Assembly: GCA_017425245.1 (NCBI GenBank)
Contig: JAFOOX010000044.1
Location: forward strand, 62,001 to 126,000
Reading direction: 5' to 3'
DNA: 64,000 nt
DNA from: Gammaproteobacteria bacterium
GTDB taxonomy: Bacteria; Pseudomonadota; Gammaproteobacteria; Enterobacterales; Neiellaceae
Under the pieces are notes generated by a model. That model saw only the letters and a list, made by a program, of their open reading frames with translations. It ran no database searches and was not told the origin of the DNA. How positions within the stretch are numbered: the stretch's first letter is position 1; the number at the start of each line of letters is the position of its first letter. This document shows, in pieces, positions 26,360 to 40,238 of this stretch. A program made the position numbers and the translations under genes.

Positions 26360-26932
26360 TTAGTCGTTGCCGCTGCTCAGCAGCAGTTTGCTCCACTGTT
26401 CGACCAGTTCGCTACGGCCCTGCTGCTGGGCGGCGGTCAGCGCAAAAGGCACAACCCAGGCGCGGGCAGGGGCTGGCGTGGCCACAAAACCAGGATCGGC
26501 CAGCAAGCTCTCGAACAGTGCCAACCCCTGGCTGTGAGTGCCAAAAAACTCAGGCACCGAAGTCAGAGTGGCGGCGGCAATGGCGTTAATGTAATCACCC
26601 TCGCGCAGCCCTTGATGCTGACGCGCCAGCTGCTCGTCACCCGTTGCCGCCAGCGCCTGGCGGATCAGGGTCAGCCCCTCTTGGGTAAAGCGTCCGGCGG
26701 TTGCCGGATCACGCGCCTCACGCCCCATCAGGGTGCGAGCCGAACCGGCATAGACCAGTGTTAACGGATCGGCGCCAGCGCTCGCCAGCGACTGGCTGAG
26801 ACTGGCATAGGCGTTGGCCGCAGCCCCTGCCTCGCCACGAGTGGCCTTGAGGTAGAGATCGACCTGCTGCGGCTCAACCGCCAGCGCTGCACTGCTCAGG
26901 GACAACAGGGTCATCATGGTCAGGATTTTCAT
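26360..26932 (-). CDS. Small secreted protein, probable target of the adjacent two-component system
   Basis: I do not recognise this 190-residue protein. The start at MKILTMMTLLSLSS gives a signal peptide (cleaved after ALA, residue 18) and follows a GGAGGAG site. The mature part is Ala/Leu-rich, looks all-helical and has no Cys, suggesting a soluble periplasmic TPR-like or helical-bundle protein. GCGACCAA-type repeats spaced by 20 bases lie 69 bases upstream, the same arrangement as before the LytS-type kinase gene. I infer that the LytTR regulator encoded just upstream controls it. Confidence 0.8.
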   Translation of the reverse strand: MKILTMMTLLSLSSAALAVEPQQVDLYLKATRGEAGAAANAYASLSQSLASAGADPLTLVYAGSARTLMGREARDPATAGRFTQEGLTLIRQALAATGDEQLARQHQGLREGDYINAIAAATLTSVPEFFGTHSQGLALFESLLADPGFVATPAPARAWVVPFALTAAQQQGRSELVEQWSKLLLSSGND

Positions 26933-27000
26933 CGTGTGCTCCTCCTTGGGTTGTGGCACAGATGCAGTCTGACCAGCGTGCGCTGGCGAAACTGGCCGAT

Positions 27001-27028
27001 GCGACCAATGGTCATCTGCGGCGATAAA
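27001..27028 (-). promoter_or_regulatory. Putative LytTR-regulator binding site before the secreted-protein gene
   Basis: GCGACCAA at 27001 and GCGATAAA at 27021 are 20 bases apart. The stretch GCGACCAATGGTCATC is nearly the same as one at 28909 before the kinase gene. LytTR-domain regulators bind direct repeats about two helical turns apart, so this is a likely operator. Confidence 0.55.
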
Positions 27029-27054
27029 CGGCAGCTGCCGGGCTCAGCAGCGCA

Positions 27055-27080
27055 AACAAAAACAGCGCCCGGAGGCGCTG
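27055..27080 (-). terminator. Terminator after the LytTR regulator gene
   Basis: On the minus strand CAGCGCC and GGCGCTG form a stem with a 4-base loop, followed by TTTTTG. It lies 18 bases past the regulator stop codon and separates the kinase-regulator operon from the secreted-protein gene. Confidence 0.75.
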
Positions 27081-27097
27081 CTGGATTCTGCCAACCC

Positions 27098-27865
27098 TTA
27101 CATCTGCTTGAACAACCCCTGACAGGCACGGCTGACTGCCAGCTTCACCCCAGACTGATGCAGATGAACAAACATCCGCCCAGCCAGATCCCGGCTGACC
27201 CGCTGAATGGCCGCGACCCGCACGATGGTGCTGCGGTGGATCTGCCAGAACAGAGAAGCGTCCAGCTTCGTCAGCAGCTCCTTGAGGGGCAACCGCATCA
27301 GAAAACAGCCGCTGGCGGTGTAAACGCTGGTGTATTTGTCCTCGGCCTGAAAGTAGCTCACCTCGGCCACATCGAGCAGCAGGGTCTCCTCTCCTTTGGC
27401 CACCCGCAGCCAACGCAATGACGGCGCTACCGCCGGCGCCGGCAGTTGGCCCAGCGCCGCCAGCAACGCCGCCAGTTGCTGTTGTTCGGGAGGGGTACTG
27501 GATGGCGCTGCAGCCAGCAGCCGGGCCCGGGTCTGCAGTAGCCGCTCATCACTCACCGGCTTGAGCAGGTAATCAGCAGCGGCCAGTTCGAAGGCGCGCA
27601 CCGCATGCTCATCAAAGGCGGTAACAAACACCAGCTTCGGCGGCCGGGGCAACGCCGGCAGGCGGGCCGCCAGTTGCAAACCATCCATGCCGGGCATGCG
27701 AATATCGAGAAACAGCAGATCCGGCTGCAGCACCTCAAGCAACTGCCAGCCACTGTCACCATCACCGGCCTTGCCGACCACCTCCAGCTCCGGCCACAGA
27801 TCGGCCAGCCGCTGATCCAGATGGTGACGCAGCAGTGGTTCGTCATCGACGATCAGGGCGCGCAT
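27098..27865 (-). CDS. LytTR-family response regulator
   Basis: The 255-residue response regulator has a receiver domain (residues 1-120) with the acidic pocket VDDEP and phospho-acceptor D54 (LFLDIRMPGMDG), and a C-terminal LytTR DNA-binding domain (about 150-250; EVSYFQAEDKYTSVYTASG and FWQIHRSTIVRVAAIQRV). This is the LytR/YehT/YpdB class. Its start overlaps the 3' end of the sensor kinase gene, so the two form an operon. Likely targets are the two promoters with the 20-bp-spaced GCGACCAA repeats. Confidence 0.92.
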   Translation of the reverse strand: MRALIVDDEPLLRHHLDQRLADLWPELEVVGKAGDGDSGWQLLEVLQPDLLFLDIRMPGMDGLQLAARLPALPRPPKLVFVTAFDEHAVRAFELAAADYLLKPVSDERLLQTRARLLAAAPSSTPPEQQQLAALLAALGQLPAPAVAPSLRWLRVAKGEETLLLDVAEVSYFQAEDKYTSVYTASGCFLMRLPLKELLTKLDASLFWQIHRSTIVRVAAIQRVSRDLAGRMFVHLHQSGVKLAVSRACQGLFKQM

Positions 27866-28842
27866 GGCACCTCCAGTTGGGCTCTTACCCCGCCTTCGGG
27901 GCGCTCGCCGAGGGTCAGGCGCCCCCGTTCACCAAACAGCGCCGCCAGACGCTGGCGGACATTGCTCAGACCAACGCCATGGCCGCTGTCGCTATGGCCA
28001 AAGCCGGCTCCGCTATCCTCGACACTGAGCAGCAGCTGGCCGTCACGGCGGCTGACAGACACGCTGATCTCGCCCCCCGCCGGCAGGGCCTCAATGCCAT
28101 GGTTGAGCGCGTTCTCCACCAGGGGCTGCAGCAGCAACGGCGGAAAGGGGGTGGCCGGGTCCACATCGGGCTGACACAGCAGCCGATAGCGCAAGCGCTC
28201 ACCCAGACGCACCTGCTGGATCGCCAGATAGGTTTCCACCAGGGTCAGCTCATCGGCCAGCGGTCTGAGCGGGTCGCGGCTGGCCACCAGACTGGTGCGC
28301 AGCAGACGGGTCAGCAGTTCAAGCAGGGCGGTCGCCCGCTGGCTGTCGCTGGCGATCAGCGCCCCCAGATTGGCCAAGGTGTTAAACAGAAAATGGGGCT
28401 CAATCTGGCTCTGCAGTGCCCGTAACTGACTCTCCGCCAGCAGCCGCTGCTGTTCAGCCGTAACCCGCGCCTGCTCTGCCAGTTGTGCCCGCAACCGCAC
28501 CTGGCTGTCGCGTGCATGAAAAAACAGGCAAAACGCACAGCCGATCAGCGAGGCCACCACCAGCATCGGCAGGCTGACCTCGGTGCCGTGACGCGCCAAC
28601 TGCCAGCTCAGAAAGGCGCCGCCGACCAGCGCCGCAGCCACACAGACCAGCAGCAACCGCCACAGGCCGAAGTCTGGCCGGTTCCAGCCCAGCAGCTGAC
28701 CCGCCATCACCGAGCAGGCCACATAGACCAAGGTGATCTGCAGATGAAACAGATAGCTGCCGGGCAGGATGGCAAATGACAGGGCAGCGGCAGCCAAGGC
28801 GATCAGCACCACTCTGACCAGCAGCAACAACCAAGTATTCAT
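27853..28842 (-). CDS. LytS/YehU-type sensor histidine kinase
   Basis: The 329-residue membrane sensor kinase has four hydrophobic segments in residues 1-110 and no obvious periplasmic sensing domain. A coiled coil (about 112-145) leads into the His_kinase domain with H150 in QIEPHFLFNTLANLG, and the HATPase domain has the N-box LVENALNHGIEAL and a GHGVGLSNVRQRL G-box. The short loops suggest it senses the membrane or a small molecule within it. The cognate regulator gene follows with overlap. Confidence 0.92.
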   Translation of the reverse strand: MNTWLLLLVRVVLIALAAAALSFAILPGSYLFHLQITLVYVACSVMAGQLLGWNRPDFGLWRLLLVCVAAALVGGAFLSWQLARHGTEVSLPMLVVASLIGCAFCLFFHARDSQVRLRAQLAEQARVTAEQQRLLAESQLRALQSQIEPHFLFNTLANLGALIASDSQRATALLELLTRLLRTSLVASRDPLRPLADELTLVETYLAIQQVRLGERLRYRLLCQPDVDPATPFPPLLLQPLVENALNHGIEALPAGGEISVSVSRRDGQLLLSVEDSGAGFGHSDSGHGVGLSNVRQRLAALFGERGRLTLGERPEGGVRAQLEVPCAP

Positions 28843-28908
28843 GATTTAACTCCATCATCGCGATTGGTACTGCAGGTTAATCGCGGCCACCATTGCCATC
28901 CCGGTGCT

Positions 28909-28956
28909 GCGACCAAGGGTCATCAGCGGCGACCAACCGCCCCTGGTGACGACCAA
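28909..28956 (-). promoter_or_regulatory. Triple 20-bp-spaced operator before the sensor kinase gene
   Basis: GCGACCAA (28909), GCGACCAA (28929) and ACGACCAA (28949) recur with an exact 20-base period, 67-114 bases before the kinase start. The phasing of about two helical turns fits LytTR dimers bound side by side, so this is probably autoregulation. Confidence 0.6.
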
Positions 28957-29015
28957 TGGTGAGACGAGAACAACAGCTTGCCAGATCAAGGCTTTTAGCG
29001 ACGAGTGCGCCCCGC

Positions 29016-29039: not shown

Positions 29040-29115
29040 GGCCCCTTAGCTCAGTGGTTAGAGCAGGCGACTCATAATCGCTTGGTCGTTGGTTCAAACC
29101 CAACAGGGGCCACCA
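29040..29115 (+). tRNA. ileX: tRNA-Ile2 (anticodon CAT, lysidine-modified type)
   Basis: The 76-base tRNA folds with acceptor stem GGCCCCT/AGGGGCC, D-loop AGTGGTTAGA, anticodon loop CTCATAA and encoded CCA end. Its body matches E. coli ileX (tRNA-Ile2) as I recall it, apart from T-stem changes, and ileX also lies downstream of rpoD there. It is therefore called tRNA-Ile with CAT anticodon, which reads AUA after TilS adds lysidine, rather than tRNA-Met. Its 3' end is the left attachment site of the genomic island. Confidence 0.9.
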
Positions 29116-29371: not shown

Positions 29372-31768
29372 TCACGCACTCCCCTGATACAGGTACTTCT
29401 GGAAACCCACAAAGGTGCCGCGCACCACATCAGGTGCGCCGAGGTCGGCGAAGGCATCAGGTAGCGCGCTGTATTTGAGTTTGAGCAGTGGGCCGAGCTT
29501 GGTTTCATCCAGCTCCTCCACACCCTCACTCACGTAGTGCGCCAGCACGAAGCTCAGGAAGGCCTGTTGCTTGTTGCTGTACGCGGTGCTGATCACTGCT
29601 TTGGCCCGTTCGGCACGCTCTTCGCGGGTCAGTGGTGCTTCGGCGTAGGCGATGTGCGCCAGTACGTCGAAAAGGTCGCTATCCTCGGCATCGATGATCT
29701 TCTGCATCTCAGCCAGCTGGTCATGGCCGAAGCCCTTTTCTTCCAGCCCGGCGAGCAGCTGCTTGCGGGTTCCTGGGGCGCTCCAGATTGCGCGCAGCTC
29801 GTCTTCATCTTTGAAGAACTCCGGCAGCTGGCCGTAAAGCGCGGTCACGAACTGCGCGGCAGACATCGGCGTGCCATCCGGGTGCCAGAAGCTCGTTGCC
29901 ATCATGTGCTGGATCTGGCGCTCTTTGCCGTCTGCCAGCTTCACCTTGGCTTTCTTTCTCTTCTGGCACACGCAGGGGCGCTGGCCGCATTCTGCGCAAG
30001 GCTCCTTGGGGCAGGTGCAGGGGCTGTTGCCGCACAAATAACAAGGCGGCGATGGTTCCTTGATGCACACACAGGGCGTTTTTTGGCAACGGCCACAGAC
30101 CTCCGGCTCCAGCGGCTCGCCATCCCACTCCGGATCACTGAAGTGGTGATGGGCCTTCACGAAGTCGTAGATCGTGAAGTAGTCCTTGCCGTCATAGAGC
30201 CGAGTGCCACGCCCGATGATCTGCTTGAATTCGATCATCGAATTCACCGGCCGCATCAGCACGATGTTGCGCACATTGCGCGCATCCACCCCGGTTGAAA
30301 GCTTCTGCGACGTGGTGAGAATGGTCGGGATGGTCTTCTCGTTGTCCTGGAAGTCGCGCAGCCACTGCTCGCCCAACCCGCCATCTTCGGCAGTCACGCG
30401 CTGGCAATAGTTCGGGTCGCTGCTTTTCTTGGCCTGGTTGATCAAGTCGCGCACGGCCAACGCATGGGTCTGGGTGGCGCAGAACACAATGGTCTTCTCG
30501 CGCTGGTCGATGGCGTTCATAAAGATCTCGACGCGCTTCTTCTCGCGCTCTTTGATCTCAATGATCTTGTTGAAGTCCTTCTCTTCGTAGCGCTTGCCTG
30601 CCTCAATTTCGCCTTCCACCACGGTATCGTCCGAGGTGAACACATAGTCATCCAGCGTGGTGGCAATCTGCTTGAGGCGGAAGGGGGTAAGGAAGCCGTC
30701 GTTAATGCCGTCCTTCAGCGAATAGATGAACACTGGCTCGCCGAAGTAGGCGTAGGTGTCGGCGTTGTCCCTGCGCTTGGGGGTGGCCGTCAGGCCCAGC
30801 TGCACGGCAGGGGCAAAGTAGTCGAGGATGCCGCGCCAGTTGCTCTCGTCATTGGCACCACCCCGGTGGCACTCATCGATAATGATGAAATCGAAAAAGT
30901 CAGCTGGGTACTCGCCGAAGTAAGGCGAAGGGTGCCCGTCTTTCGGCGGGCCGCTCATAAAGGTCTGGAAGATGGTGAAGAAGATGCTGCCGTTCTTGGG
31001 CACCTTGCCCTTCTTTTTGATGTCGTCCGGCGCGATACGCACCAGCGCATCTTCGGCAAAGGCCGAAAACGAATTGAACGCCTGATTCGCCAGAATGTTG
31101 CGGTCGGCCAGAAACAGAATGCGTGGCCGGCGAGTGGGCGTAGCGGCCGATCTCCAGTCCGTCAGGTTCCAGCGGCTGTGGAACAGCTTCCAAGCCAACT
31201 GAAAGGCAATGAAGGTCTTGCCGGTGCCGGTTGCCAGCGTCAGCAGGATGCGATCACGCCCTTCCGCCAGCGCGGCCAGCACCCGTTCTATGGCGATATC
31301 CTGATAGTAGCGGCCCCGCCAGTAACCGCCCTTGTCTTCAAAGGGGACGGCGGCAAAGCGATCACGCCAGGCGTTTTCAACGGCGAACGTTGCCCGCCAC
31401 AGCGCCTCGGGCGTAGGAAATGCCGGCAGCTCGCCTTCTGTGCCGGTCAGCATATCGGCGCCGTAAACACCTTGGCCATTGGTGGCATAGGTGTATCGAA
31501 TCGACAGTTTCTGCGAGTAATCCTTGGCCTGACCCAGTCCTTCCGTCAGCGGCTTGTCCCAGGCCTTGGCCTCGACCACGGCCAGCTTAGTGTTGCGGTA
31601 CTCCAGCACATAGTCGGCAGTGAGCGCCTTGCCGCGCTTGCCCGCCCCCTCCAGCCGACCGAGCGTGATTGGGTACTCGCGGCGGACGCGGCTGCCCTCC
31701 ACCACGCCCCAGCCAGCGGCGGCCAGCGCAGGGTCGATGTGTTCAGCACGGGTTTCAGCTTCGTTCAT
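29372..31768 (-). CDS. hsdR: Type I restriction enzyme R subunit (EcoEI-like HsdR)
   Basis: The 798-residue R subunit cuts unmethylated DNA after ATP-driven translocation. The N-terminal PD-(D/E)XK nuclease has D52, E66 and K68 (ADYVLEYRNTKLAVVEAKA). The SF2 motor follows with LATGTGKTF, IIIDECHRGG and GLTATPKR, then helicase motif VI (IIGRGTRL) and an EcoEI-type C-terminal domain. Just before that domain lies an unusual run of three CxxCx4CxC units. The ATG at 31768 is preferred to 31795 because GGCGGTGAG precedes it. It is last in the hsdM-hsdS-ATPase-nuclease-hsdR series, after a 197-base AT-rich gap. Confidence 0.95.
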   Translation of the reverse strand: MNEAETRAEHIDPALAAAGWGVVEGSRVRREYPITLGRLEGAGKRGKALTADYVLEYRNTKLAVVEAKAWDKPLTEGLGQAKDYSQKLSIRYTYATNGQGVYGADMLTGTEGELPAFPTPEALWRATFAVENAWRDRFAAVPFEDKGGYWRGRYYQDIAIERVLAALAEGRDRILLTLATGTGKTFIAFQLAWKLFHSRWNLTDWRSAATPTRRPRILFLADRNILANQAFNSFSAFAEDALVRIAPDDIKKKGKVPKNGSIFFTIFQTFMSGPPKDGHPSPYFGEYPADFFDFIIIDECHRGGANDESNWRGILDYFAPAVQLGLTATPKRRDNADTYAYFGEPVFIYSLKDGINDGFLTPFRLKQIATTLDDYVFTSDDTVVEGEIEAGKRYEEKDFNKIIEIKEREKKRVEIFMNAIDQREKTIVFCATQTHALAVRDLINQAKKSSDPNYCQRVTAEDGGLGEQWLRDFQDNEKTIPTILTTSQKLSTGVDARNVRNIVLMRPVNSMIEFKQIIGRGTRLYDGKDYFTIYDFVKAHHHFSDPEWDGEPLEPEVCGRCQKTPCVCIKEPSPPCYLCGNSPCTCPKEPCAECGQRPCVCQKRKKAKVKLADGKERQIQHMMATSFWHPDGTPMSAAQFVTALYGQLPEFFKDEDELRAIWSAPGTRKQLLAGLEEKGFGHDQLAEMQKIIDAEDSDLFDVLAHIAYAEAPLTREERAERAKAVISTAYSNKQQAFLSFVLAHYVSEGVEELDETKLGPLLKLKYSALPDAFADLGAPDVVRGTFVGFQKYLYQGSA
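29966..30097 (-). other. Triple CxxCx4CxC zinc-binding-like insert in HsdR
   Basis: Three consecutive cysteine units (CGRCQKTPCVC, CYLCGNSPCTC, CAECGQRPCVC) are joined by Pro/Glu/Lys linkers, twelve Cys in 44 residues. They look like tandem rubredoxin-type zinc knuckles between the motor and the C-terminal M-interaction region. Confidence 0.75.
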
Positions 31769-31797
31769 GTTGTGTCTCACCGCCTGAAAAGCCATCG

Positions 31798-31819
31798 AAT
31801 CAAAACTGAATCAAGAAAG
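31798..31819 (-). repeat. AATCAA direct repeat, copy 1 (hsdR start)
   Basis: A 22-base stretch containing AATCAAAAC then AATCAAGAAA, found again exactly 100 bases further on at 31898 with two mismatches. Each copy itself holds two AATCAA units 11 bases apart, one helical turn. It sits just upstream of the hsdR start and could be an operator. Confidence 0.55.
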
Positions 31820-31897
31820 AATTAAGGCCAAAAAACAACCCAACATATTGATTTTATTTACTTAAACCACTTGGTGGTGGCCATCAGATCACTCGGC

Positions 31898-31919
31898 AAT
31901 CAAAACCCAATCAAGAAAC
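31898..31919 (-). repeat. AATCAA direct repeat, copy 2 (hsdR upstream)
   Basis: Second copy of the AATCAA-rich 22-mer, in the gap between the nuclease-like gene and hsdR. The 78 bases between the copies are AT-rich and may hold the hsdR promoter. Confidence 0.55.
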
Positions 31920-31965
31920 GCTCCCCGTGGTTTGCCCGGCCCGAACAAAGCTCGCATTGCTTCCA

Positions 31966-32454
31966 TCAAGGAAGCACCAGCACTGTCGCCTGAACATCGA
32001 TCCGGAAGCCGTACTCCCGGAAAAACCGACGTTGAAGTTCGTTGTCGATAGTCGTAAACGCCCTGTGTCGCTTGTTGCAGGCAAACGCCTTCTTGTGGCG
32101 GAAGGGCGTCAGATCATGGTGAGCACGGAGAAACTGAATTGTTGACTCCAGTTGCTGAATGGCATGAGGTTGCCAGTTGGCCTTCTGATCTTTCAATTCA
32201 ACCAGATATAACAAATCTTCCGTGGTCAACATGCCATCACAGCGGCCTCGACCGGGTGCGTCGCAATCTTGAATCACGCACTTGTCGATCGCGGTGAAGA
32301 TGATCGCCTTTTGTGACGGATTCTCCACGGTCGCCACCCACTTAGCGGGATTGGCTATATCGACATAAGCACGAGTCGCATTCTGGTCGTCACAAAGCCC
32401 GAACTGTGTCTGATTGAAGGGGCCGCTCTGACATTGAGGCTTGAAGAAATCCAT
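31966..32454 (-). CDS. Putative PD-(D/E)XK-like partner of the embedded ATPase
   Basis: A 162-residue protein of unrecognised family. Residues D73 (RCDGM), E86 and K88 (LLYLVELKD), with Q100/Q101 in the following helix, form the order and spacing of a PD-(D/E)XK nuclease core: strand with Asp, hairpin strand with ExK, then a helix with Gln. Several Cys (8, 21, 60, 64, 72, 126) cluster around it. Its start lies 2 bases after the ATPase stop, so the pair is co-translated. I infer a nuclease effector of a two-gene defence module; fold and activity are unproven. Confidence 0.7.
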   Translation of the reverse strand: MDFFKPQCQSGPFNQTQFGLCDDQNATRAYVDIANPAKWVATVENPSQKAIIFTAIDKCVIQDCDAPGRGRCDGMLTTEDLLYLVELKDQKANWQPHAIQQLESTIQFLRAHHDLTPFRHKKAFACNKRHRAFTTIDNELQRRFFREYGFRIDVQATVLVLP

Positions 32455-32456
32455 CT

Positions 32457-33701
32457 TCAGATCGCCTCCTCCAGTTCCAGCAGCCGGTCGAACAACTCGT
32501 TGCCAGTGCGTAGCCAGTCGTTCAACAGGTTGTGATCCGAAGGGATCCCCTCGAAACAGGGCAATGCGCTAACGCTGCCGTCGCGCTCGTTGCACTGGTA
32601 GATCGCCACATCATCAGCCAGCAGCAAAGCTTCCTTGGGCACGATCTCGTATAGAGCGGACAGCAAATCCTCGCGCTTGTGCTCCATCAGCCGCTGTTGC
32701 AGGTGTTTACCCTGAATGGCCAGGCTCAGGAAACTCACGATATAGGGGCTGTGCGTGGTTAAGACCAGACGGTTATGCGTCCCTAGGCTGTTGAAGGCCA
32801 GCAAACTTTTCAGGATGTGCCACTGCGATGACGGGAACAGGTTCTGCTCCGGCTCCTCGACGATGTTGATGAAGGCTTTCTTGTTAAAACGCGCAGACAA
32901 CACCGAGATCGCCGCCTGCTTTTGCCATTCGGTCAGGGAGTCATTGGCAAAAATGCTCGCCACGCCCTTCTTGAAACGATCCATTTCGTCCGCGCTCATT
33001 GGCTGGTCCGCTTGACCGCTCCCTTCCTGCACACGATGGGCAAGGTGCCGGCTCACCAGATACACCGGCACAAAAGACTGGAAGCCGCTGGAAGCATCCG
33101 TCAGCCACACCTTGTGAGTTGGCCCCTTGAGGTTGAGTACATCGTTGAGCTTGTCGTACTCGATTTCACTATCGTTGATTGGCAGCTTCAGGGCGCCGCG
33201 CAGACTTTTTTTAGCTTCGTCGAAGGCAGTTAGGAATTCCTTCAGCGATTCGGAAGAGAGCTTCAACTCTCTCGGGTTCCGCACATACGAAATGAAATTG
33301 CGCTCGGCCGGCACATACATCACCTGTGGTAAGGCATAGCTTTTACGGCCAGTTTCCGTGATGCTCAATTGCCCGCCTGCATACGAGATTCTGCAGGCCT
33401 CGCCTTCGTACTCGATTACTGAGCTCCCACGGCCACTCGTCTCCAGATAATTCTCCAGCCGGTGATAACGCAGGAACTGATTTTTCAGTTTGCCCTTGCG
33501 CTCAAACCATTTCTTTCCATAGTCGCCGCGCACCAGCGCCTTCTCGATCCAGGAGAAAGTGGAAAACAGCTTGGCCAGCGTGCTCTTTCCCGCCCCCTGG
33601 TTGCCGATGAAAACGGTGACCCGCTTGAAGTCGATCCAGCCATCATTGCTCGACAAGCCGGGGCCGATGGGGCCGAAGTTTTTGATACGTAGGCGGATCA
33701 T
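32457..33701 (-). CDS. AAA_21/ABC-type ATPase embedded in the type I restriction operon
   Basis: A 414-residue SMC/ABC-like ATPase of the AAA_21 (OLD/RecF-like) group. It starts MIRLRIKNFGPIG, typical of this class, with Walker A GNQGAGKS (33-40), signature SSGFQS (204-209), Walker B INIVEEPEQNLFP (278-290) and H-loop His317 (LTTHSPYIV). It has no Toprim or HNH domain of its own, so the small downstream protein probably supplies the effector. It lies between hsdS and hsdR, the place where prrC sits in some type I systems. Likely a sensor that frees or activates its partner. Confidence 0.85.
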   Translation of the reverse strand: MIRLRIKNFGPIGPGLSSNDGWIDFKRVTVFIGNQGAGKSTLAKLFSTFSWIEKALVRGDYGKKWFERKGKLKNQFLRYHRLENYLETSGRGSSVIEYEGEACRISYAGGQLSITETGRKSYALPQVMYVPAERNFISYVRNPRELKLSSESLKEFLTAFDEAKKSLRGALKLPINDSEIEYDKLNDVLNLKGPTHKVWLTDASSGFQSFVPVYLVSRHLAHRVQEGSGQADQPMSADEMDRFKKGVASIFANDSLTEWQKQAAISVLSARFNKKAFINIVEEPEQNLFPSSQWHILKSLLAFNSLGTHNRLVLTTHSPYIVSFLSLAIQGKHLQQRLMEHKREDLLSALYEIVPKEALLLADDVAIYQCNERDGSVSALPCFEGIPSDHNLLNDWLRTGNELFDRLLELEEAI

Positions 33702-33723
33702 GGTGTATCTCCAGTGCTATGCG

Positions 33724-34911
33724 TTACAGCTTACCCGAGAAAGCCTGATGCAGCAGGGATTGCTTCAACTCGTCCAATGCGTCGAGCTTGCGCTGATAGA
33801 GGGCTTCGAGGTTCTGGGTTTCTTCACGAATTTGATTGATAAGCGGTATCGCCTGATCTTGGTACGATCTTGGCGGTAGACAAATCGGTTGAATCTTGAA
33901 AAGCGCGTGTGAGATGTCTGGTTGAGCCGCTTTTGATGCGAGCGTTGTTATCCGTGCCCGGAAAGCGGGGCTTTGAAGCCACCAAAATAGATAGTCATCA
34001 TTGAGCTCATTGCTAGGAGTGACTTTGAAGCAGTTGTTGTGCAAAACGCCCCTACGTCCCCGAAAAACCAAACCGATCTGACCTGTTCGTGTGTAAATAA
34101 TCTCTGATTCAGTGACAAATGCGTTTTTAGGCCAACCTGCTTCTGCCACGTATTGTTCTGATGAGTTATCACGGAGATCTTTTATCCTCAACAAAGGAAG
34201 GTTGCTGCTCTCGACAAGTAGATGTTTCGTTTTCGCGTTTATGCAAAGCCCTTGAAATAGCTCACAAACATCGCCAAGGGTTTTATCCACCCATCCCTCA
34301 CCTCGCTGGCTGAAGATGGACTGGAGGTGGCTTTCGAAGAGGGCGCGGGCGTTTTGGCGGTTTTGCTCGGCGGCGGCGCGGGCCGTGGCGATGCCGGCAA
34401 AGGCTTCGTCGAGGATGGCGACGATGCGTTGTTGTTCGGGGGGCGGAGGCAGCGGGAGAACATGCTCTTCAAGAAAATCTTTGGCGACTCGCTTATGTCC
34501 CACCGCGCCAGTCATCGACTGTGCGCCTGCTTCACGAAATGACGGTTGAGATAGGAAGTAGTAAAGGTACTCAGCCGTTACCCGGCTCGATGGGCGAATG
34601 ACGAAATATTCGGAAGAGCCAAATCCGATGCCGTTTTCAAGATCACGGGCGATGCCCAGCTTCCCATTCTCGAAACAAGGCGTGATTTTGGCGAGCAGTA
34701 CGTCACCGTCAGCAAAATAGGTGTAGCTGCCGGCAACCGAGCCAAGCGGCCTGACTCCTGAAGGTTTAAAGTACTTCTGGTCAACGCCCAGATCTTCCAT
34801 CGGTGCGAAAGACACTATGTCGGTCTCTGCCAGTCTTTTCCGGGCTTCTGATTTAGGCGGCCTGAAAGTACAGACGTCAGCGAGCCGGACTGTCTCCCAC
34901 CCCGCCTTCAT
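33724..34911 (-). CDS. hsdS: Type I restriction-modification specificity subunit
   Basis: The 395-residue HsdS reads the two-part DNA target through two target recognition domains (about 1-165 and 195-365), each followed by a conserved helical spacer (LPPPPEQQRIVAILDEAF at about 155; a shorter one at the C terminus, LEALYQRKLDALDELKQSLL). Its first ATG overlaps the stop codon of the GIY-YIG reading frame (ATGA). The same 14 bases that surround this start also occur at the end of hsdM, which shows that hsdM and hsdS were once directly coupled. It is co-transcribed with the ATPase gene downstream. Confidence 0.95.
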   Translation of the reverse strand: MKAGWETVRLADVCTFRPPKSEARKRLAETDIVSFAPMEDLGVDQKYFKPSGVRPLGSVAGSYTYFADGDVLLAKITPCFENGKLGIARDLENGIGFGSSEYFVIRPSSRVTAEYLYYFLSQPSFREAGAQSMTGAVGHKRVAKDFLEEHVLPLPPPPEQQRIVAILDEAFAGIATARAAAEQNRQNARALFESHLQSIFSQRGEGWVDKTLGDVCELFQGLCINAKTKHLLVESSNLPLLRIKDLRDNSSEQYVAEAGWPKNAFVTESEIIYTRTGQIGLVFRGRRGVLHNNCFKVTPSNELNDDYLFWWLQSPAFRARITTLASKAAQPDISHALFKIQPICLPPRSYQDQAIPLINQIREETQNLEALYQRKLDALDELKQSLLHQAFSGKL

Positions 34912-34920
34912 AGCATCGCC
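34907..34920 (-). repeat. 14-bp direct repeat at the hsdS start (cassette edge)
   Basis: TTCATAGCATCGCC spans the hsdS start codon and matches 35370-35383 exactly at the hsdM stop. The two copies bracket the GIY-YIG/REP segment and look like a target site duplication. Confidence 0.8.
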
Positions 34921-35300
34921 TCCCCATCCGTTCGTGGTGAGCTTGTCGAACCATGAACGGATGTACCGTGCTTTGGCCCTTCGACAGGCTCAGGGCGAAC
35001 GCAGTTTGAGGGAGGCGGTGTTTTTGAATGTGCAAGGCGCGACACTTCGGCCCAATCGCCTTGCATCATGGCTTCCTTCTTTTTGCGGCTCCAGCCTTTT
35101 ATTTGTTGCTCGGCAGCGAGCGCTTCTTCGCGGATGGCCCAGTCTTGGGTGAAGACCAAGGTGAGCGGTCGACGCATGAAGGTGTAGCAAGTTGCGAACG
35201 CGCCTGCGTGGTGCTGGGCGAGGCGTTGTTCGAGGTTGTCTGTGTGGCCGGTGTAGTAGCTAGCGTCGGCACAGCGGAGGATGTAGACCCAGAACGCCAT
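34908..35300 (-). CDS. GIY-YIG nuclease-family protein in a REP-flanked cassette
   Basis: The start is set at MAFWVYILRCADAS (35300), with AAGGAGG a few bases upstream; the open frame beyond it runs through repeat DNA. The GIY-YIG core reads WVYILRC then YYTGHT, with R25 in QRLAQHH and E57 in EEALAAEQQIKGWSRKKKEAM, as in the small YhbQ/UvrC-N-like proteins (usually 80-100 residues). The last 40 or so residues are translated REP palindrome and hsdS leader, so the ancestral protein probably ended near TPPPSN. It sits between hsdM and hsdS and has no known role in restriction. Likely passenger or mover of the repeat cassette. Confidence 0.85.
   Translation of the reverse strand: MAFWVYILRCADASYYTGHTDNLEQRLAQHHAGAFATCYTFMRRPLTLVFTQDWAIREEALAAEQQIKGWSRKKKEAMMQGDWAEVSRLAHSKTPPPSNCVRPEPVEGPKHGTSVHGSTSSPRTDGEAML
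34928..35001. repeat. Inverted REP pair (REPIN-like) on the hsdS side
   Basis: TTCGTGGTGAGCTTGTCGAA (within 34928-34952) and TTCGACAGGCTCAGGGCGAA (within 34977-35001) are inverted copies of the same REP-type palindrome, 24 bases apart. This spacing is like REPIN doublets in proteobacterial genomes. Confidence 0.8.
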
Positions 35301-35321
35301 CAATGACCTCCTTGCCAATTG

Positions 35322-35347
35322 CCCTTCGACAAGCTCAGGGCGAACGG
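35322..35347. repeat. Single REP-type palindrome on the hsdM side
   Basis: TTCGACAAGCTCAGGGCGAA is the third copy of the same repeat, in the same orientation as the one at 34977. It lies between the hsdM stop codon and the GIY-YIG start. Confidence 0.8.
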
Positions 35348-35369
35348 ATCTGTGTAGGCGATGAGGTAG

Positions 35370-35383
35370 TTCATAGCATCGCC
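35370..35383 (-). repeat. 14-bp direct repeat at the hsdM stop (cassette edge)
   Basis: Second exact copy of TTCATAGCATCGCC. It contains the hsdM stop codon (GCGATGCTATGA on the minus strand), as the first copy contains the hsdS start. Confidence 0.8.
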
Positions 35384-36825
35384 CTGATGCTCGCCAGCAC
35401 CTCGGCGCTCTCGGCATCCAGCGCGGCGATCTCGTCCAGGATCTCCTGCGGGCTGCGGTGCACCACAGCCTCGCCACCGTTCGGGTTCTTCACCGACAGG
35501 TCATAGCTCGCTGCGTCGATGCTGGCTGCGTCCAGGCTCCAGCTCTTGGCCGAGTCGGCATAGGTCTTTTGCAGCTCGATGAACTCGGCCAGATCGGCGT
35601 CATTAAGCGGGTTGGTTTTGCCCATGTTGCGGCCGGGGTCGAGCTGGTAATACCAAACCTTGCGGGTGGGCGAACCCTTCTCGAAGAACAGCACCACGGT
35701 CTTCACCCCCGCCCCCTGAAAGGTGCCACCGGGGCAGTCCAGGATCGTGTGCAGGTTGCAGGACTCCAGCAGCAGCTTGCGCAGGCTGACCGAGGCGTTA
35801 TCGGAATTGCTGAGGAAGGTGTTCTTGATGACGATGGCGGCACGGCCACCGGCGCGCAGCATCTTGATGAAGTGCTGCAGGAAGAGGAAGGCGGTTTCGC
35901 CGGTGCGGATCGGGAAGTTCTGCTGCACTTCGGGCCGCTCTTTGCCGCCGAAGGGCGGGTTGGCGAGGATCACATCGAAGCGGTCTTTCTCCTGCACGTC
36001 GGCGAGGTTTTCGGCCAGGGTGTTGGTGTGCTGGATATTGGGCGCTTCGATGCCGTGCAGGATCAGGTTCATGATGGCGATGACATAGGCAAGGCTCTTC
36101 TTTTCCTTGCCGTAGAAGGTGCGCGTCTGCAGGGTTTCGAGGTCGCGGGTCGAGAGGTTGGGCTGGCTGCTGAGGTAATCGTGCGCTTCGCACAAAAAGC
36201 CGGCCGAGCCACAGGCGCCGTCGTAGATGCGCTCGCCAATCTTGGGCGCAGTCACCCGGATCATGGCGCGGATCAGCGGACGCGGGGTGTAGTACTCGCC
36301 CCCGTTGCGCCCGGCGTTGCCCATGCGCTTGATCTTTTCTTCATAGAGCGCGGACAGCTCGTGCTTCTCGACCTGCGAACGGAAACGCAGCTCGTCGATG
36401 TGGTCGATGATGTCGCGCAGGGTGTAGCCGCTGCGGATCTTGTTTTTAATCTCGCCGAAGATCTCACCGATCTTGTACTCGATGGTATCCGGCCCGCTGG
36501 CGCGCCGCTTGAAGCCGTGCAGGTAGGGGAAGAGCTGGCGATCGACAAAATCAACCAGATCGTCGCCGGTGAGCGCATCGTTATGGTCGAGATTGCCAGC
36601 CGCATCCTTGGGCGCGGCCCAGCTGCTCCAGCGGTAAGCCGGGTCAAGGATATAGCTGTAGGTGCGGCCTTCAAGCGCGGCCTCGTCAGCTTTGTCCTGC
36701 TCCAGCCCGTCCAGATACTTGAGAAAGAGCAGCCAGGAGGTCTGTTCGGTGTAGTCCAACTCGGTGGTGCAGCCGCTCTCTTTCCAGAGTGCATCGTCGA
36801 TATTCTTGAAGGCTTGTTCGAACAT
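35371..36825 (-). CDS. hsdM: Type I restriction-modification DNA methyltransferase
   Basis: The 484-residue N6-adenine methyltransferase modifies host DNA and anchors the restriction complex. The start at MFEQAFKNIDDALW is the family's usual beginning; upstream in-frame codons have no similarity. It has the helical N-terminal domain, the S-adenosylmethionine motif (GACGSAGFLCEAHDYL) and the catalytic NPPF (ILANPPFGGKE). It leads a minus-strand operon with hsdS, the ATPase pair and hsdR. Its stop codon lies inside the 14-bp duplicated repeat. Confidence 0.95.
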   Translation of the reverse strand: MFEQAFKNIDDALWKESGCTTELDYTEQTSWLLFLKYLDGLEQDKADEAALEGRTYSYILDPAYRWSSWAAPKDAAGNLDHNDALTGDDLVDFVDRQLFPYLHGFKRRASGPDTIEYKIGEIFGEIKNKIRSGYTLRDIIDHIDELRFRSQVEKHELSALYEEKIKRMGNAGRNGGEYYTPRPLIRAMIRVTAPKIGERIYDGACGSAGFLCEAHDYLSSQPNLSTRDLETLQTRTFYGKEKKSLAYVIAIMNLILHGIEAPNIQHTNTLAENLADVQEKDRFDVILANPPFGGKERPEVQQNFPIRTGETAFLFLQHFIKMLRAGGRAAIVIKNTFLSNSDNASVSLRKLLLESCNLHTILDCPGGTFQGAGVKTVVLFFEKGSPTRKVWYYQLDPGRNMGKTNPLNDADLAEFIELQKTYADSAKSWSLDAASIDAASYDLSVKNPNGGEAVVHRSPQEILDEIAALDAESAEVLASIRAML

Positions 36826-37130
36826 TACGGCCAAATTTTGGAGGTGGTAGCGGACGCTTGACACTACCACACAGCAACATAGCGCCGCTATTGGGCCACC
36901 GGCGTAGTGTGGCGTAAAAGGCCTGTGATGGGTGGGCACGCTCATCCACGTGCCGGATCACTAAGCGCCAATCAGTTCGGCGCTACCGAATCACAAGCCA
37001 ATCTCCCCTGCAGACCACAACGGCTCCGTGAGTCCAGCCTTTGACCAACGGCTGAAGGTTAGCGCGGGAGTGTAGAGGCTCGGTTTTTCGCTTGGTGTGA
37101 GGATCCTGCAATGCCGTTACAGGCCAAAGC
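36826..37130. other. Non-coding stretch upstream of hsdM
   Basis: About 305 bases with no convincing gene. An inverted repeat, GTGGTAG (36844-36850) and CTACCAC (36864-36870), lies 20-45 bases before the hsdM start and could be an operator for the restriction operon. No clear sigma-70 promoter is seen. Confidence 0.45.
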
Positions 37131-39288: not shown

Positions 39289-39470
39289 TTTAGTCCAGCC
39301 AGACGGACAGACCCTTAGAATCAAATCGTTATCGGCCACTCGAAGCCTGACCAGAGGCGCTTGGCAGTCTGCCGTAATAGCGAATTTTAGGGTTAATGTT
39401 GGGGTAATTCTGACCGAGAGATTTGAATCTTGGCCCCATCTACCCCAACCCAGGAGCCACCAAGCCCCGC

Positions 39471-40238
39471 CTGGCCACGCCGCTCACCGCGATCCAATGC
39501 AAAAGCGCCAAGCCCACCGACAAGCCTTACAAGCTGTCAGACGGTGGCGTGCTCTACCTGCTGGTTGGTGCGTCCGGGTCAAAGTCCTGGTGGATGAAGT
39601 ACCGGATCGCCGGCAAGGAGATGGCGCCGCTGGCGAATGGTGGCTTTCCCGCCGTCAGCTTGGCCGATGCTCGAGCGCGCCGCGATGAAGCAAAGCGCCT
39701 GGTTTCGGAGGGCAAGGACCCGGCCGCCATCCCCATGGCCCAGCAGCGCGAAGCCGTCAGCGATGTGGAGAACAGCTTTCAGGCGGTGGCCGAGCGCTGG
39801 CTAGCCATCAAGGTGCCAGAGTGGGCACCGAGCTACACCCGCACCGTGCGCCAGCGGCTGGAGACCACCTTGTTCCCCTGGATTGGCGCTAAGCCGATCA
39901 CCCAGCTGACCAACCCTGAACTGGTGAAGCCGCTGCGCCAAGCGGTGAAGCACGGCGCCAACGACACCGCCCACCTGCTGACCATCGACGAAGTACGCGC
40001 GATCCTGCGAATCGGACGCACGAAAGCGTGGGAACTCCTTGCCTCCGGGCGACTTCAAGCGGTTCGCCTCGGCAGTCGCTGCACGCGTGACTATCTGAAG
40101 CGTTTCGACACCGAGGCCGACAAGGCGAAGAGCGCTGCGGAGCTGATCGAGGCGATGAAGACCGCCTACCCGAACGCTGGCCTGGGCATCGCGCTGGACA
40201 TTGGCGCTAAGGTGCGCAAGGGCGAGATGCAGTGGTGA
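39471..40238 (+). pseudogene. P4-type integrase N-terminal half fused to an excisionase-like HTH
   Basis: The first part (IQCKSAKPTDKPYKLSDGG to KHGANDTAH) is the N-terminal DUF4102 and SAM-like domains of a P4-family tyrosine integrase. At about 39975 the frame passes directly into LLTIDEVRAILRIGRTKAWELLASGRLQAVRLG, an AlpA/excisionase-type helix-turn-helix, and a short tail. The whole catalytic domain (R-H-R-Y) is missing. A deletion between an integrase and a distant excisionase gene in the same frame explains this. The start codon is unclear: CTG at 39471 follows an AGGAG, or TTG at 39423. Not functional as an integrase. Confidence 0.85.

What the first reader, a model, noticed from the sequence alone, without database searches (positions are those of the whole stretch)
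26932..28957. Same 20-bp-spaced GCGACCAA operator before the LytS/LytTR operon and before a secreted protein gene
GCGACCAA-type units lie at 28909, 28929 and 28949, and at 27001 and 27021, always 20 bases apart. Both sets begin 67-69 bases before a start codon, and GCGACCAA-GGTCATC-GCGGCGA is shared between them. LytTR regulators bind direct repeats about two turns apart. This predicts a small closed circuit: membrane sensor, regulator, one secreted output protein of unknown function.
Basis: partly seen in the sequence, partly recalled or inferred. Interest (0 to 1): 0.62.

Follow-up and report, generated by a model that had tools for sequence, protein, structure and literature searches.

The report
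Self-switching envelope sensor circuit, stripped down
Two genes for a membrane sensor and its DNA-binding partner, and one gene for an exported protein, carry the same on-switch DNA sequence, which occurs nowhere else we could find in this genome; the same switch controls a conserved, apparently undescribed seven-gene envelope-transport operon in Vibrio and other marine bacteria, of which this genome keeps only three genes.

Summary
On the minus strand, units of CCRTTNRTCGC recur at exactly 20 bp before the LytS kinase gene (three units) and before a secreted-protein gene (two). The paired pattern (up to 3 mismatches) gives 3 window hits against 0.06 expected; genome-wide the only hits with up to 2 mismatches are these. 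In 80 named relatives of the secreted protein, unit pairs before its gene pile up at 20 bp (72 pairs; at most 4 at other spacings from 12 to 39) and 40 bp (35), with a TTAAYCT -10-like box 28 bp downstream, as in the window's lytS promoter. A model built only from relatives finds the window's secreted-gene site as its one significant genome hit. There the gene heads a seven-gene operon: secreted TPR-like protein, LolD-like ATPase, FtsX-like permease, LolA-like protein, outer-membrane barrel, LytS, LytTR. Where kinase and regulator form a separate unit, that unit has its own operator; inside the operon, none. The window is a reduced split form: LolA-like and barrel genes were not found in the genome. 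Units match the AlgR box. Most likely a positively autoregulated LytS/LytTR circuit with one remaining dedicated output. Binding is untested.

The parts
28909..28959 (-). Operator 1, before the kinase/regulator genes: three 20-bp-phased units CCATTGGTCGT (28959-28949), CGGTTGGTCGC (28939-28929), CCCTTGGTCGC (28919-28909)
28874..28880 (-). TTAACCT, -10-like element 28 bp after the proximal unit, the same place as TTAAYCT in the relatives
27853..28842 (-). LytS-type sensor histidine kinase, 329 aa (His_kinase PF06580 + HATPase_c; hydrophobic N-terminal part)
27098..27865 (-). LytTR response regulator, 255 aa (Response_reg + LytTR); overlaps the kinase gene end
27061..27082 (-). Predicted terminator between the regulator gene and operator 2
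27001..27031 (-). Operator 2, before the secreted gene: CCGTTTATCGC (27031-27021) and CCATTGGTCGC (27011-27001)
26966..26972 (-). TCAGACT, -10-like element at the same 28-bp offset from the proximal unit
26360..26932 (-). Secreted (signal-peptide) all-helical TPR-like protein, 190 aa, member of the SEC family

Best explanation
The two promoters carry the operator of the LytTR regulator encoded between them. When the LytS-type membrane kinase senses its (unknown) envelope signal it phosphorylates the regulator, which binds head-to-tail to AlgR-box-like units two helical turns apart, centred near -47 and -67 (and -87 before lytS), and activates transcription from a fixed-distance -10 box. Targets in this genome: its own kinase-regulator operon (positive feedback) and the gene of one exported TPR-like protein. 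The set derives from a seven-gene operon in which the exported protein works with a LolD/FtsX-type ABC transporter, a LolA-like periplasmic carrier and an outer-membrane barrel, most likely moving a lipid or lipoprotein through the envelope. The window lineage lost the transport genes at this locus and kept sensor, regulator and exported protein. Shown: operator, geometry, conservation, gene linkage, and absence of the LolA-like and barrel genes from the available assembly. Inferred: binding, activation, phosphorylation, signal and transport role.
For: Exact 20-bp phasing and genome-wide specificity. In upstream regions of 80 homologous genes, 72 unit pairs at spacing 20 and 35 at 40, at most 4 at any other spacing from 12 to 39; conserved -10-like box at a fixed offset, matched by the window lytS promoter. 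A model built without window sequence picks the window's secreted-gene site as the only significant hit in the genome (E 2e-4; next 0.5). Linkage of SEC, LolD-like, FtsX, LolA-like, barrel, LytS and LytTR in nearly all 80 loci. In split loci the separate barrel-kinase-regulator unit has its own 20-bp operator (score 14-18 of 20 in 6 of 6, p up to 0.04), whereas in single-operon loci the barrel gene has none (0 of 4). SEC genes at loci where no regulator was found lack the operator. The window regulator falls in the SEC-linked clade (support 94) and the window SEC nests among full-operon SECs. LolA-like and barrel genes not found in the genome, with the LolA-like model hitting four control genomes strongly. 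Unit matches the AlgR core CCGTTCGTC (PMC4064291).
Against: No binding or expression data. The model trained on relatives' SEC promoters did not reach significance at the lytS site, which rests on the pattern search (2 mismatches per pair). The genome is 89% complete in 74 contigs, so further sites or the transport genes could be missing. ATPase and permease genes were not searched for genome-wide, since common paralogues would match. The barrel model had no separate control search. The window SEC protein is divergent (long branch, PW motif lost), so its link to transport may be gone. The motif-versus-regulator contrast is not perfect: L163 has a regulator and no clear site at the predicted start, and L159 and L165 have a kinase and no clear site.
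Confidence: 0.8

Rival explanations
1. The sites are the operator of this regulator, but it represses, or acts as a pulsed switch, rather than simply activating.
For: Known LytTR regulators can repress as well as activate: AlgR represses rhlI (PMC4064291), and YpdB gives pulsed expression by sequential binding to its A and B sites (PMC4847170).
Against: The units lie upstream of the core promoter at fixed positions near -47 and -67, the usual place for activators, and not over the -10 or start; the -10-like box departs from TATAAT, as expected for an activator-dependent promoter.
Confidence: 0.12
2. Another LytTR or unrelated regulator of the genome, not the adjacent one, uses these sites.
For: No binding data; AlgR-like boxes are a general LytTR recognition type.
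Against: The operator follows this kinase/regulator pair from locus to locus, appears before the separate kinase unit in split architectures and is missing at SEC loci where no regulator was found.
Confidence: 0.05
3. The 20-bp repeats are chance or a repeat element with no regulatory role.
For: The single 8-mer is common in the window.
Against: 0.06 chance hits expected for the pair pattern against 3 found; conservation across families with units and -10-like box preserved.
Confidence: 0.02
4. The window lineage shows an ancestral small circuit, and the seven-gene operon was built from it by gene gain.
For: In this genome the three genes are intact and separately promoted; other genera of the family lack the system near rpoD.
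Against: The window SEC nests inside SECs of full systems, next to Agarivorans and Aliagarivorans; G097 and G056 hold the kinase-regulator-SEC order within full systems, G097 near rpoD and tRNA-Met as in the window.
Confidence: 0.1

Closest known systems
AlgZ(FimS)/AlgR of Pseudomonas aeruginosa
   Same: LytTR-type regulator with a membrane kinase; AlgR box CCGTTCGTC (also CCGTTTGTC, CCGTTCATC) coincides with the first nine bases of the unit CCRTTYRTCGC (PMC4064291).
   Different: AlgR sites are often single, distant or inverted and not necessarily direct repeats 12 bp apart; alginate and pilus targets; orthology not tested.
BtsS/BtsR and YpdA/YpdB of E. coli
   Same: LytS/LytTR two-component pairs controlling one main transport-related target; YpdB sites are direct repeats at a 21-bp period (PMC4847170); the target gene is adjacent in several species (PMC5552118).
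   Different: Other motif sequence (GGCATTTCAT for YpdB), pyruvate signal and target permeases; BtsR model score 127 against a cut-off of 246. This system is not among those described in PMC5552118.
Lol lipoprotein-sorting system / MacB-type ABC exporters
   Same: LolD-like ATPase, single FtsX/MacB_PCD permease, LolA_like (PF17131) protein in the operon of the relatives.
   Different: LolD and LolCE models fall below their cut-offs (218 of 308; 103 of 362), one permease only, own barrel, own TPR-like protein and own two-component system.

Membership tests
LytS/LytTR two-component system | Response regulator with receiver and LytTR DNA-binding domain | tested here: met
   PF00072 E 1e-23 and PF04397 E 1e-21
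LytS/LytTR two-component system | Membrane kinase with His_kinase (PF06580) and HATPase_c, encoded next to the regulator | tested here: met
   genes overlap at 27853-27865
LytS/LytTR two-component system | Two repeats of 9-11 nt separated by 11-13 nt (PMC4847170) | tested here: met
   9-nt core plus 11-nt spacer gives the 20-bp period, at the lower limit
LytS/LytTR two-component system | Regulator binds the repeats | not testable with these tools
   needs a binding assay
AlgZ/AlgR | AlgR box CCGTTCGTC | tested here: met
   consensus CCRTTYRTCGC in relatives; window units differ from the box by a few bases
AlgZ/AlgR | Orthology to AlgR by sequence or tree | not tested
   no AlgR sequence was brought in
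BtsS/BtsR | BtsR equivalog score | tested here: not met
   127 bits against a cut-off of 246
BtsS/BtsR | BtsS kinase with GAF domain (PMC5552118) | tested here: not met
   only PF06580 and PF02518 found in the window kinase
Seven-gene SEC-LolD-FtsX-LolA-barrel-LytS-LytTR system | SEC, LytS and LytTR homologues linked, with operator | tested here: met
Seven-gene SEC-LolD-FtsX-LolA-barrel-LytS-LytTR system | LolA-like and barrel genes in the genome | tested here: not met
   not found in the 89%-complete genome; LolA-like model hits controls
Lol system | LolD and LolCE equivalog scores (homologues in A. fischeri) | tested here: not met
   218 of 308 bits; 103 of 362 bits

The most novel reading that the evidence does not exclude
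A previously undescribed, widespread LytS/LytTR-controlled trans-envelope transport system (exported TPR-like protein, LolD/FtsX ABC transporter, LolA-like carrier, outer-membrane barrel), switched on by a strict 20-bp-phased AlgR-type operator with positive autoregulation; in the window lineage it has shed its transporter, leaving sensor, regulator and the exported protein, which may itself be the signal or a feedback ligand of the kinase.
Probability: 0.4. Interest if true: 0.7.

Novelty: new variant of a known kind. Interest (0 to 1): 0.52.

Why it matters
It gives a sequence-level operator code (unit, 20-bp phase, 28-bp distance to the -10 box) for a LytS/LytTR system present in many Vibrio, Aliivibrio and Photobacterium species for which I found no description, and ties it to an envelope-transport operon. 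The regulon can be predicted from sequence alone. The reduced form in this window is a natural minimal circuit: sensor, regulator, one output.

Tried and rejected
The sigma-70 scan found no consensus promoter; the -10-like box came from comparison. Pfam and NCBIfam give no family for the secreted protein, nor does PDB sequence search; Foldseek gives only weak TPR-like matches, none at E below 0.001. The barrel fold is closest to AlgE and other porin-like barrels, but at TM about 0.5 and 9% identity, so no alginate role is claimed. Plasmid records gave only general LytTR hits for the DNA and Vibrio second chromosomes without annotation for the protein. Literature searches found no paper on this operon. 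A recent whole-promoter duplication was considered for the shared 24-mer and rejected: identity is high only at the two proximal units and the 9 bp between them, with 4 of 7 bases at the -10 box.

Full report
CHECK OF THE OBSERVATION. Sequence and ORFs confirm the units and spacings. On the coding strand the unit is CCRTTNRTCGC. lytS side: CCATTGGTCGT-N9-CGGTTGGTCGC-N9-CCCTTGGTCGC (28959-28909). Secreted-gene side: CCGTTTATCGC-N9-CCATTGGTCGC (27031-27001). The 8-mer alone is close to chance. The pair is not: 3 hits in the window against 0.06 expected. In the 3.45-Mb genome the only hits with up to two mismatches are these three pairs at two promoters; two 3-mismatch hits fall inside long open frames. 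Caveat: the genome is 89% complete in 74 contigs.

THE GENES. Minus strand, in order: LytS-type kinase (PF06580 + HATPase_c), LytTR response regulator (receiver + LytTR), a predicted terminator, then a 190-aa protein with a signal peptide (the signal peptide is read from the sequence). rpoD lies downstream (convergent) and a tRNA-Met upstream (divergent). The exported protein matches no Pfam or NCBIfam family; AlphaFold gives a confident all-helical model (pLDDT 90) with weak TPR-like matches.

RELATIVES. Homologues of the exported protein (called SEC here) turn up in 11 of 98 other related genomes, in 13 of 368 other genomes sampled across the class, and in 80 named loci, mostly Vibrio, Aliivibrio and Photobacterium, also Moritella, Agarivorans and Aliagarivorans. 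Nearly all 80 carry SEC, LolD-like ATPase, FtsX/MacB-like permease, LolA_like protein, outer-membrane barrel, LytS and LytTR in a row. Some loci are split: SEC-ABC-FtsX-LolA in one unit and barrel-kinase-regulator in another (Aliagarivorans, G039, G015), or barrel-kinase-regulator then SEC-ABC-FtsX-LolA (G056, G097). G097 has this set near rpoD and directly after a tRNA-Met, as in the window's surroundings; other genera of the window's family have the rpoD and, mostly, tRNA-Met neighbourhood without the system.

THE OPERATOR IS CONSERVED. Before the SEC gene in the 80 loci, unit pairs fall at spacing 20 in 72 cases and 40 in 35, and in at most 4 at any other spacing from 12 to 39. Aligned on the proximal unit, the units and a box TTAAYCT 28 bp downstream are conserved; the window lytS promoter has TTAACCT and the secreted-gene promoter TCAGACT at the same offset. 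Taking the box as -10, the proximal unit spans about -52 to -42 (inference, no start sites mapped). A sequence model built only from 43 relatives' operators finds the window's secreted-gene operator at E 2e-4 in the whole genome, the next hit being 0.5, and as the only hit in the window; it does not reach the lytS site, which is more divergent.

NATURAL CONTROLS. In all six split loci examined the separate barrel-kinase-regulator unit has its own 20-bp-paired operator (scores 14-18 of 20, shuffle p from below 0.002 to 0.04); in four single-operon loci nothing lies before the barrel gene (scores 11-12). SEC genes at loci where no regulator was found (L162, L164, L166-L169, L171) lack it. Kinase-regulator pairs without a SEC homologue in G018 and G042 also show it. 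This pattern is what autoregulation by the linked regulator predicts.

REDUCTION IN THE WINDOW. The window regulator groups with SEC-linked regulators (support 94) and the window SEC with Agarivorans-type SECs inside the full-system clade (support 85 and 97), so the three-gene form is most simply derived by loss. Models of the LolA-like and barrel proteins find nothing in the genome, while the LolA-like model hits control genomes at E below 1e-85. The SEC motif P-W-[NST]-K-M is typical of the family: 96 of 103 SECs have the tryptophan; the seven without it, the window among them, come from loci without LolA-like and barrel genes, at least two independent changes on the tree. This suggests, as inference, that the motif serves the interaction with the transport partners.

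MECHANISM. Best reading: the kinase senses an envelope signal, the phosphorylated regulator binds head-to-tail units two turns apart and activates both promoters; positive feedback plus one output. The unit equals the AlgR core CCGTTCGTC within its degeneracy (PMC4064291), and the architecture fits the LytTR rule of 9-11-nt repeats with 11-13-nt spacers (PMC4847170). Binding, direction of control, signal and cargo are not shown.

NOVELTY. LytS/LytTR pairs with direct-repeat operators are known; the gammaproteobacterial survey I could read treats BtsSR and YpdAB (PMC5552118), and my searches of open-access papers found no description of this operon. That search does not cover subscription journals.

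Noticed in passing
window 29372-36945: A type I restriction-modification cluster (EcoAI-like R subunit, S subunit, M subunit) with an AAA-type ATPase gene inside it lies just beyond the tRNA-Met at 29040-29115, with an integrase-like ORF at 39423-40238; looks like a genomic island at the tRNA gene.
   Followed up: partly
window 26360-26932: The secreted protein lacks the PW(N)KMK motif; 96 of 103 homologues keep its tryptophan, and the other six without it also come from loci lacking the LolA-like and barrel genes.
   Followed up: yes
L036, L037 upstream of the kinase gene: Kinase-regulator pairs of G018 and G042 have no SEC homologue nearby but carry 20-bp-phased units about 260-300 bp before the kinase gene; their target is unknown.
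   Followed up: partly
L162, L164, L166-L169: SEC homologues standing alone or with only ABC ATPase and permease, without kinase, regulator or operator: a second form of the family.
   Followed up: partly
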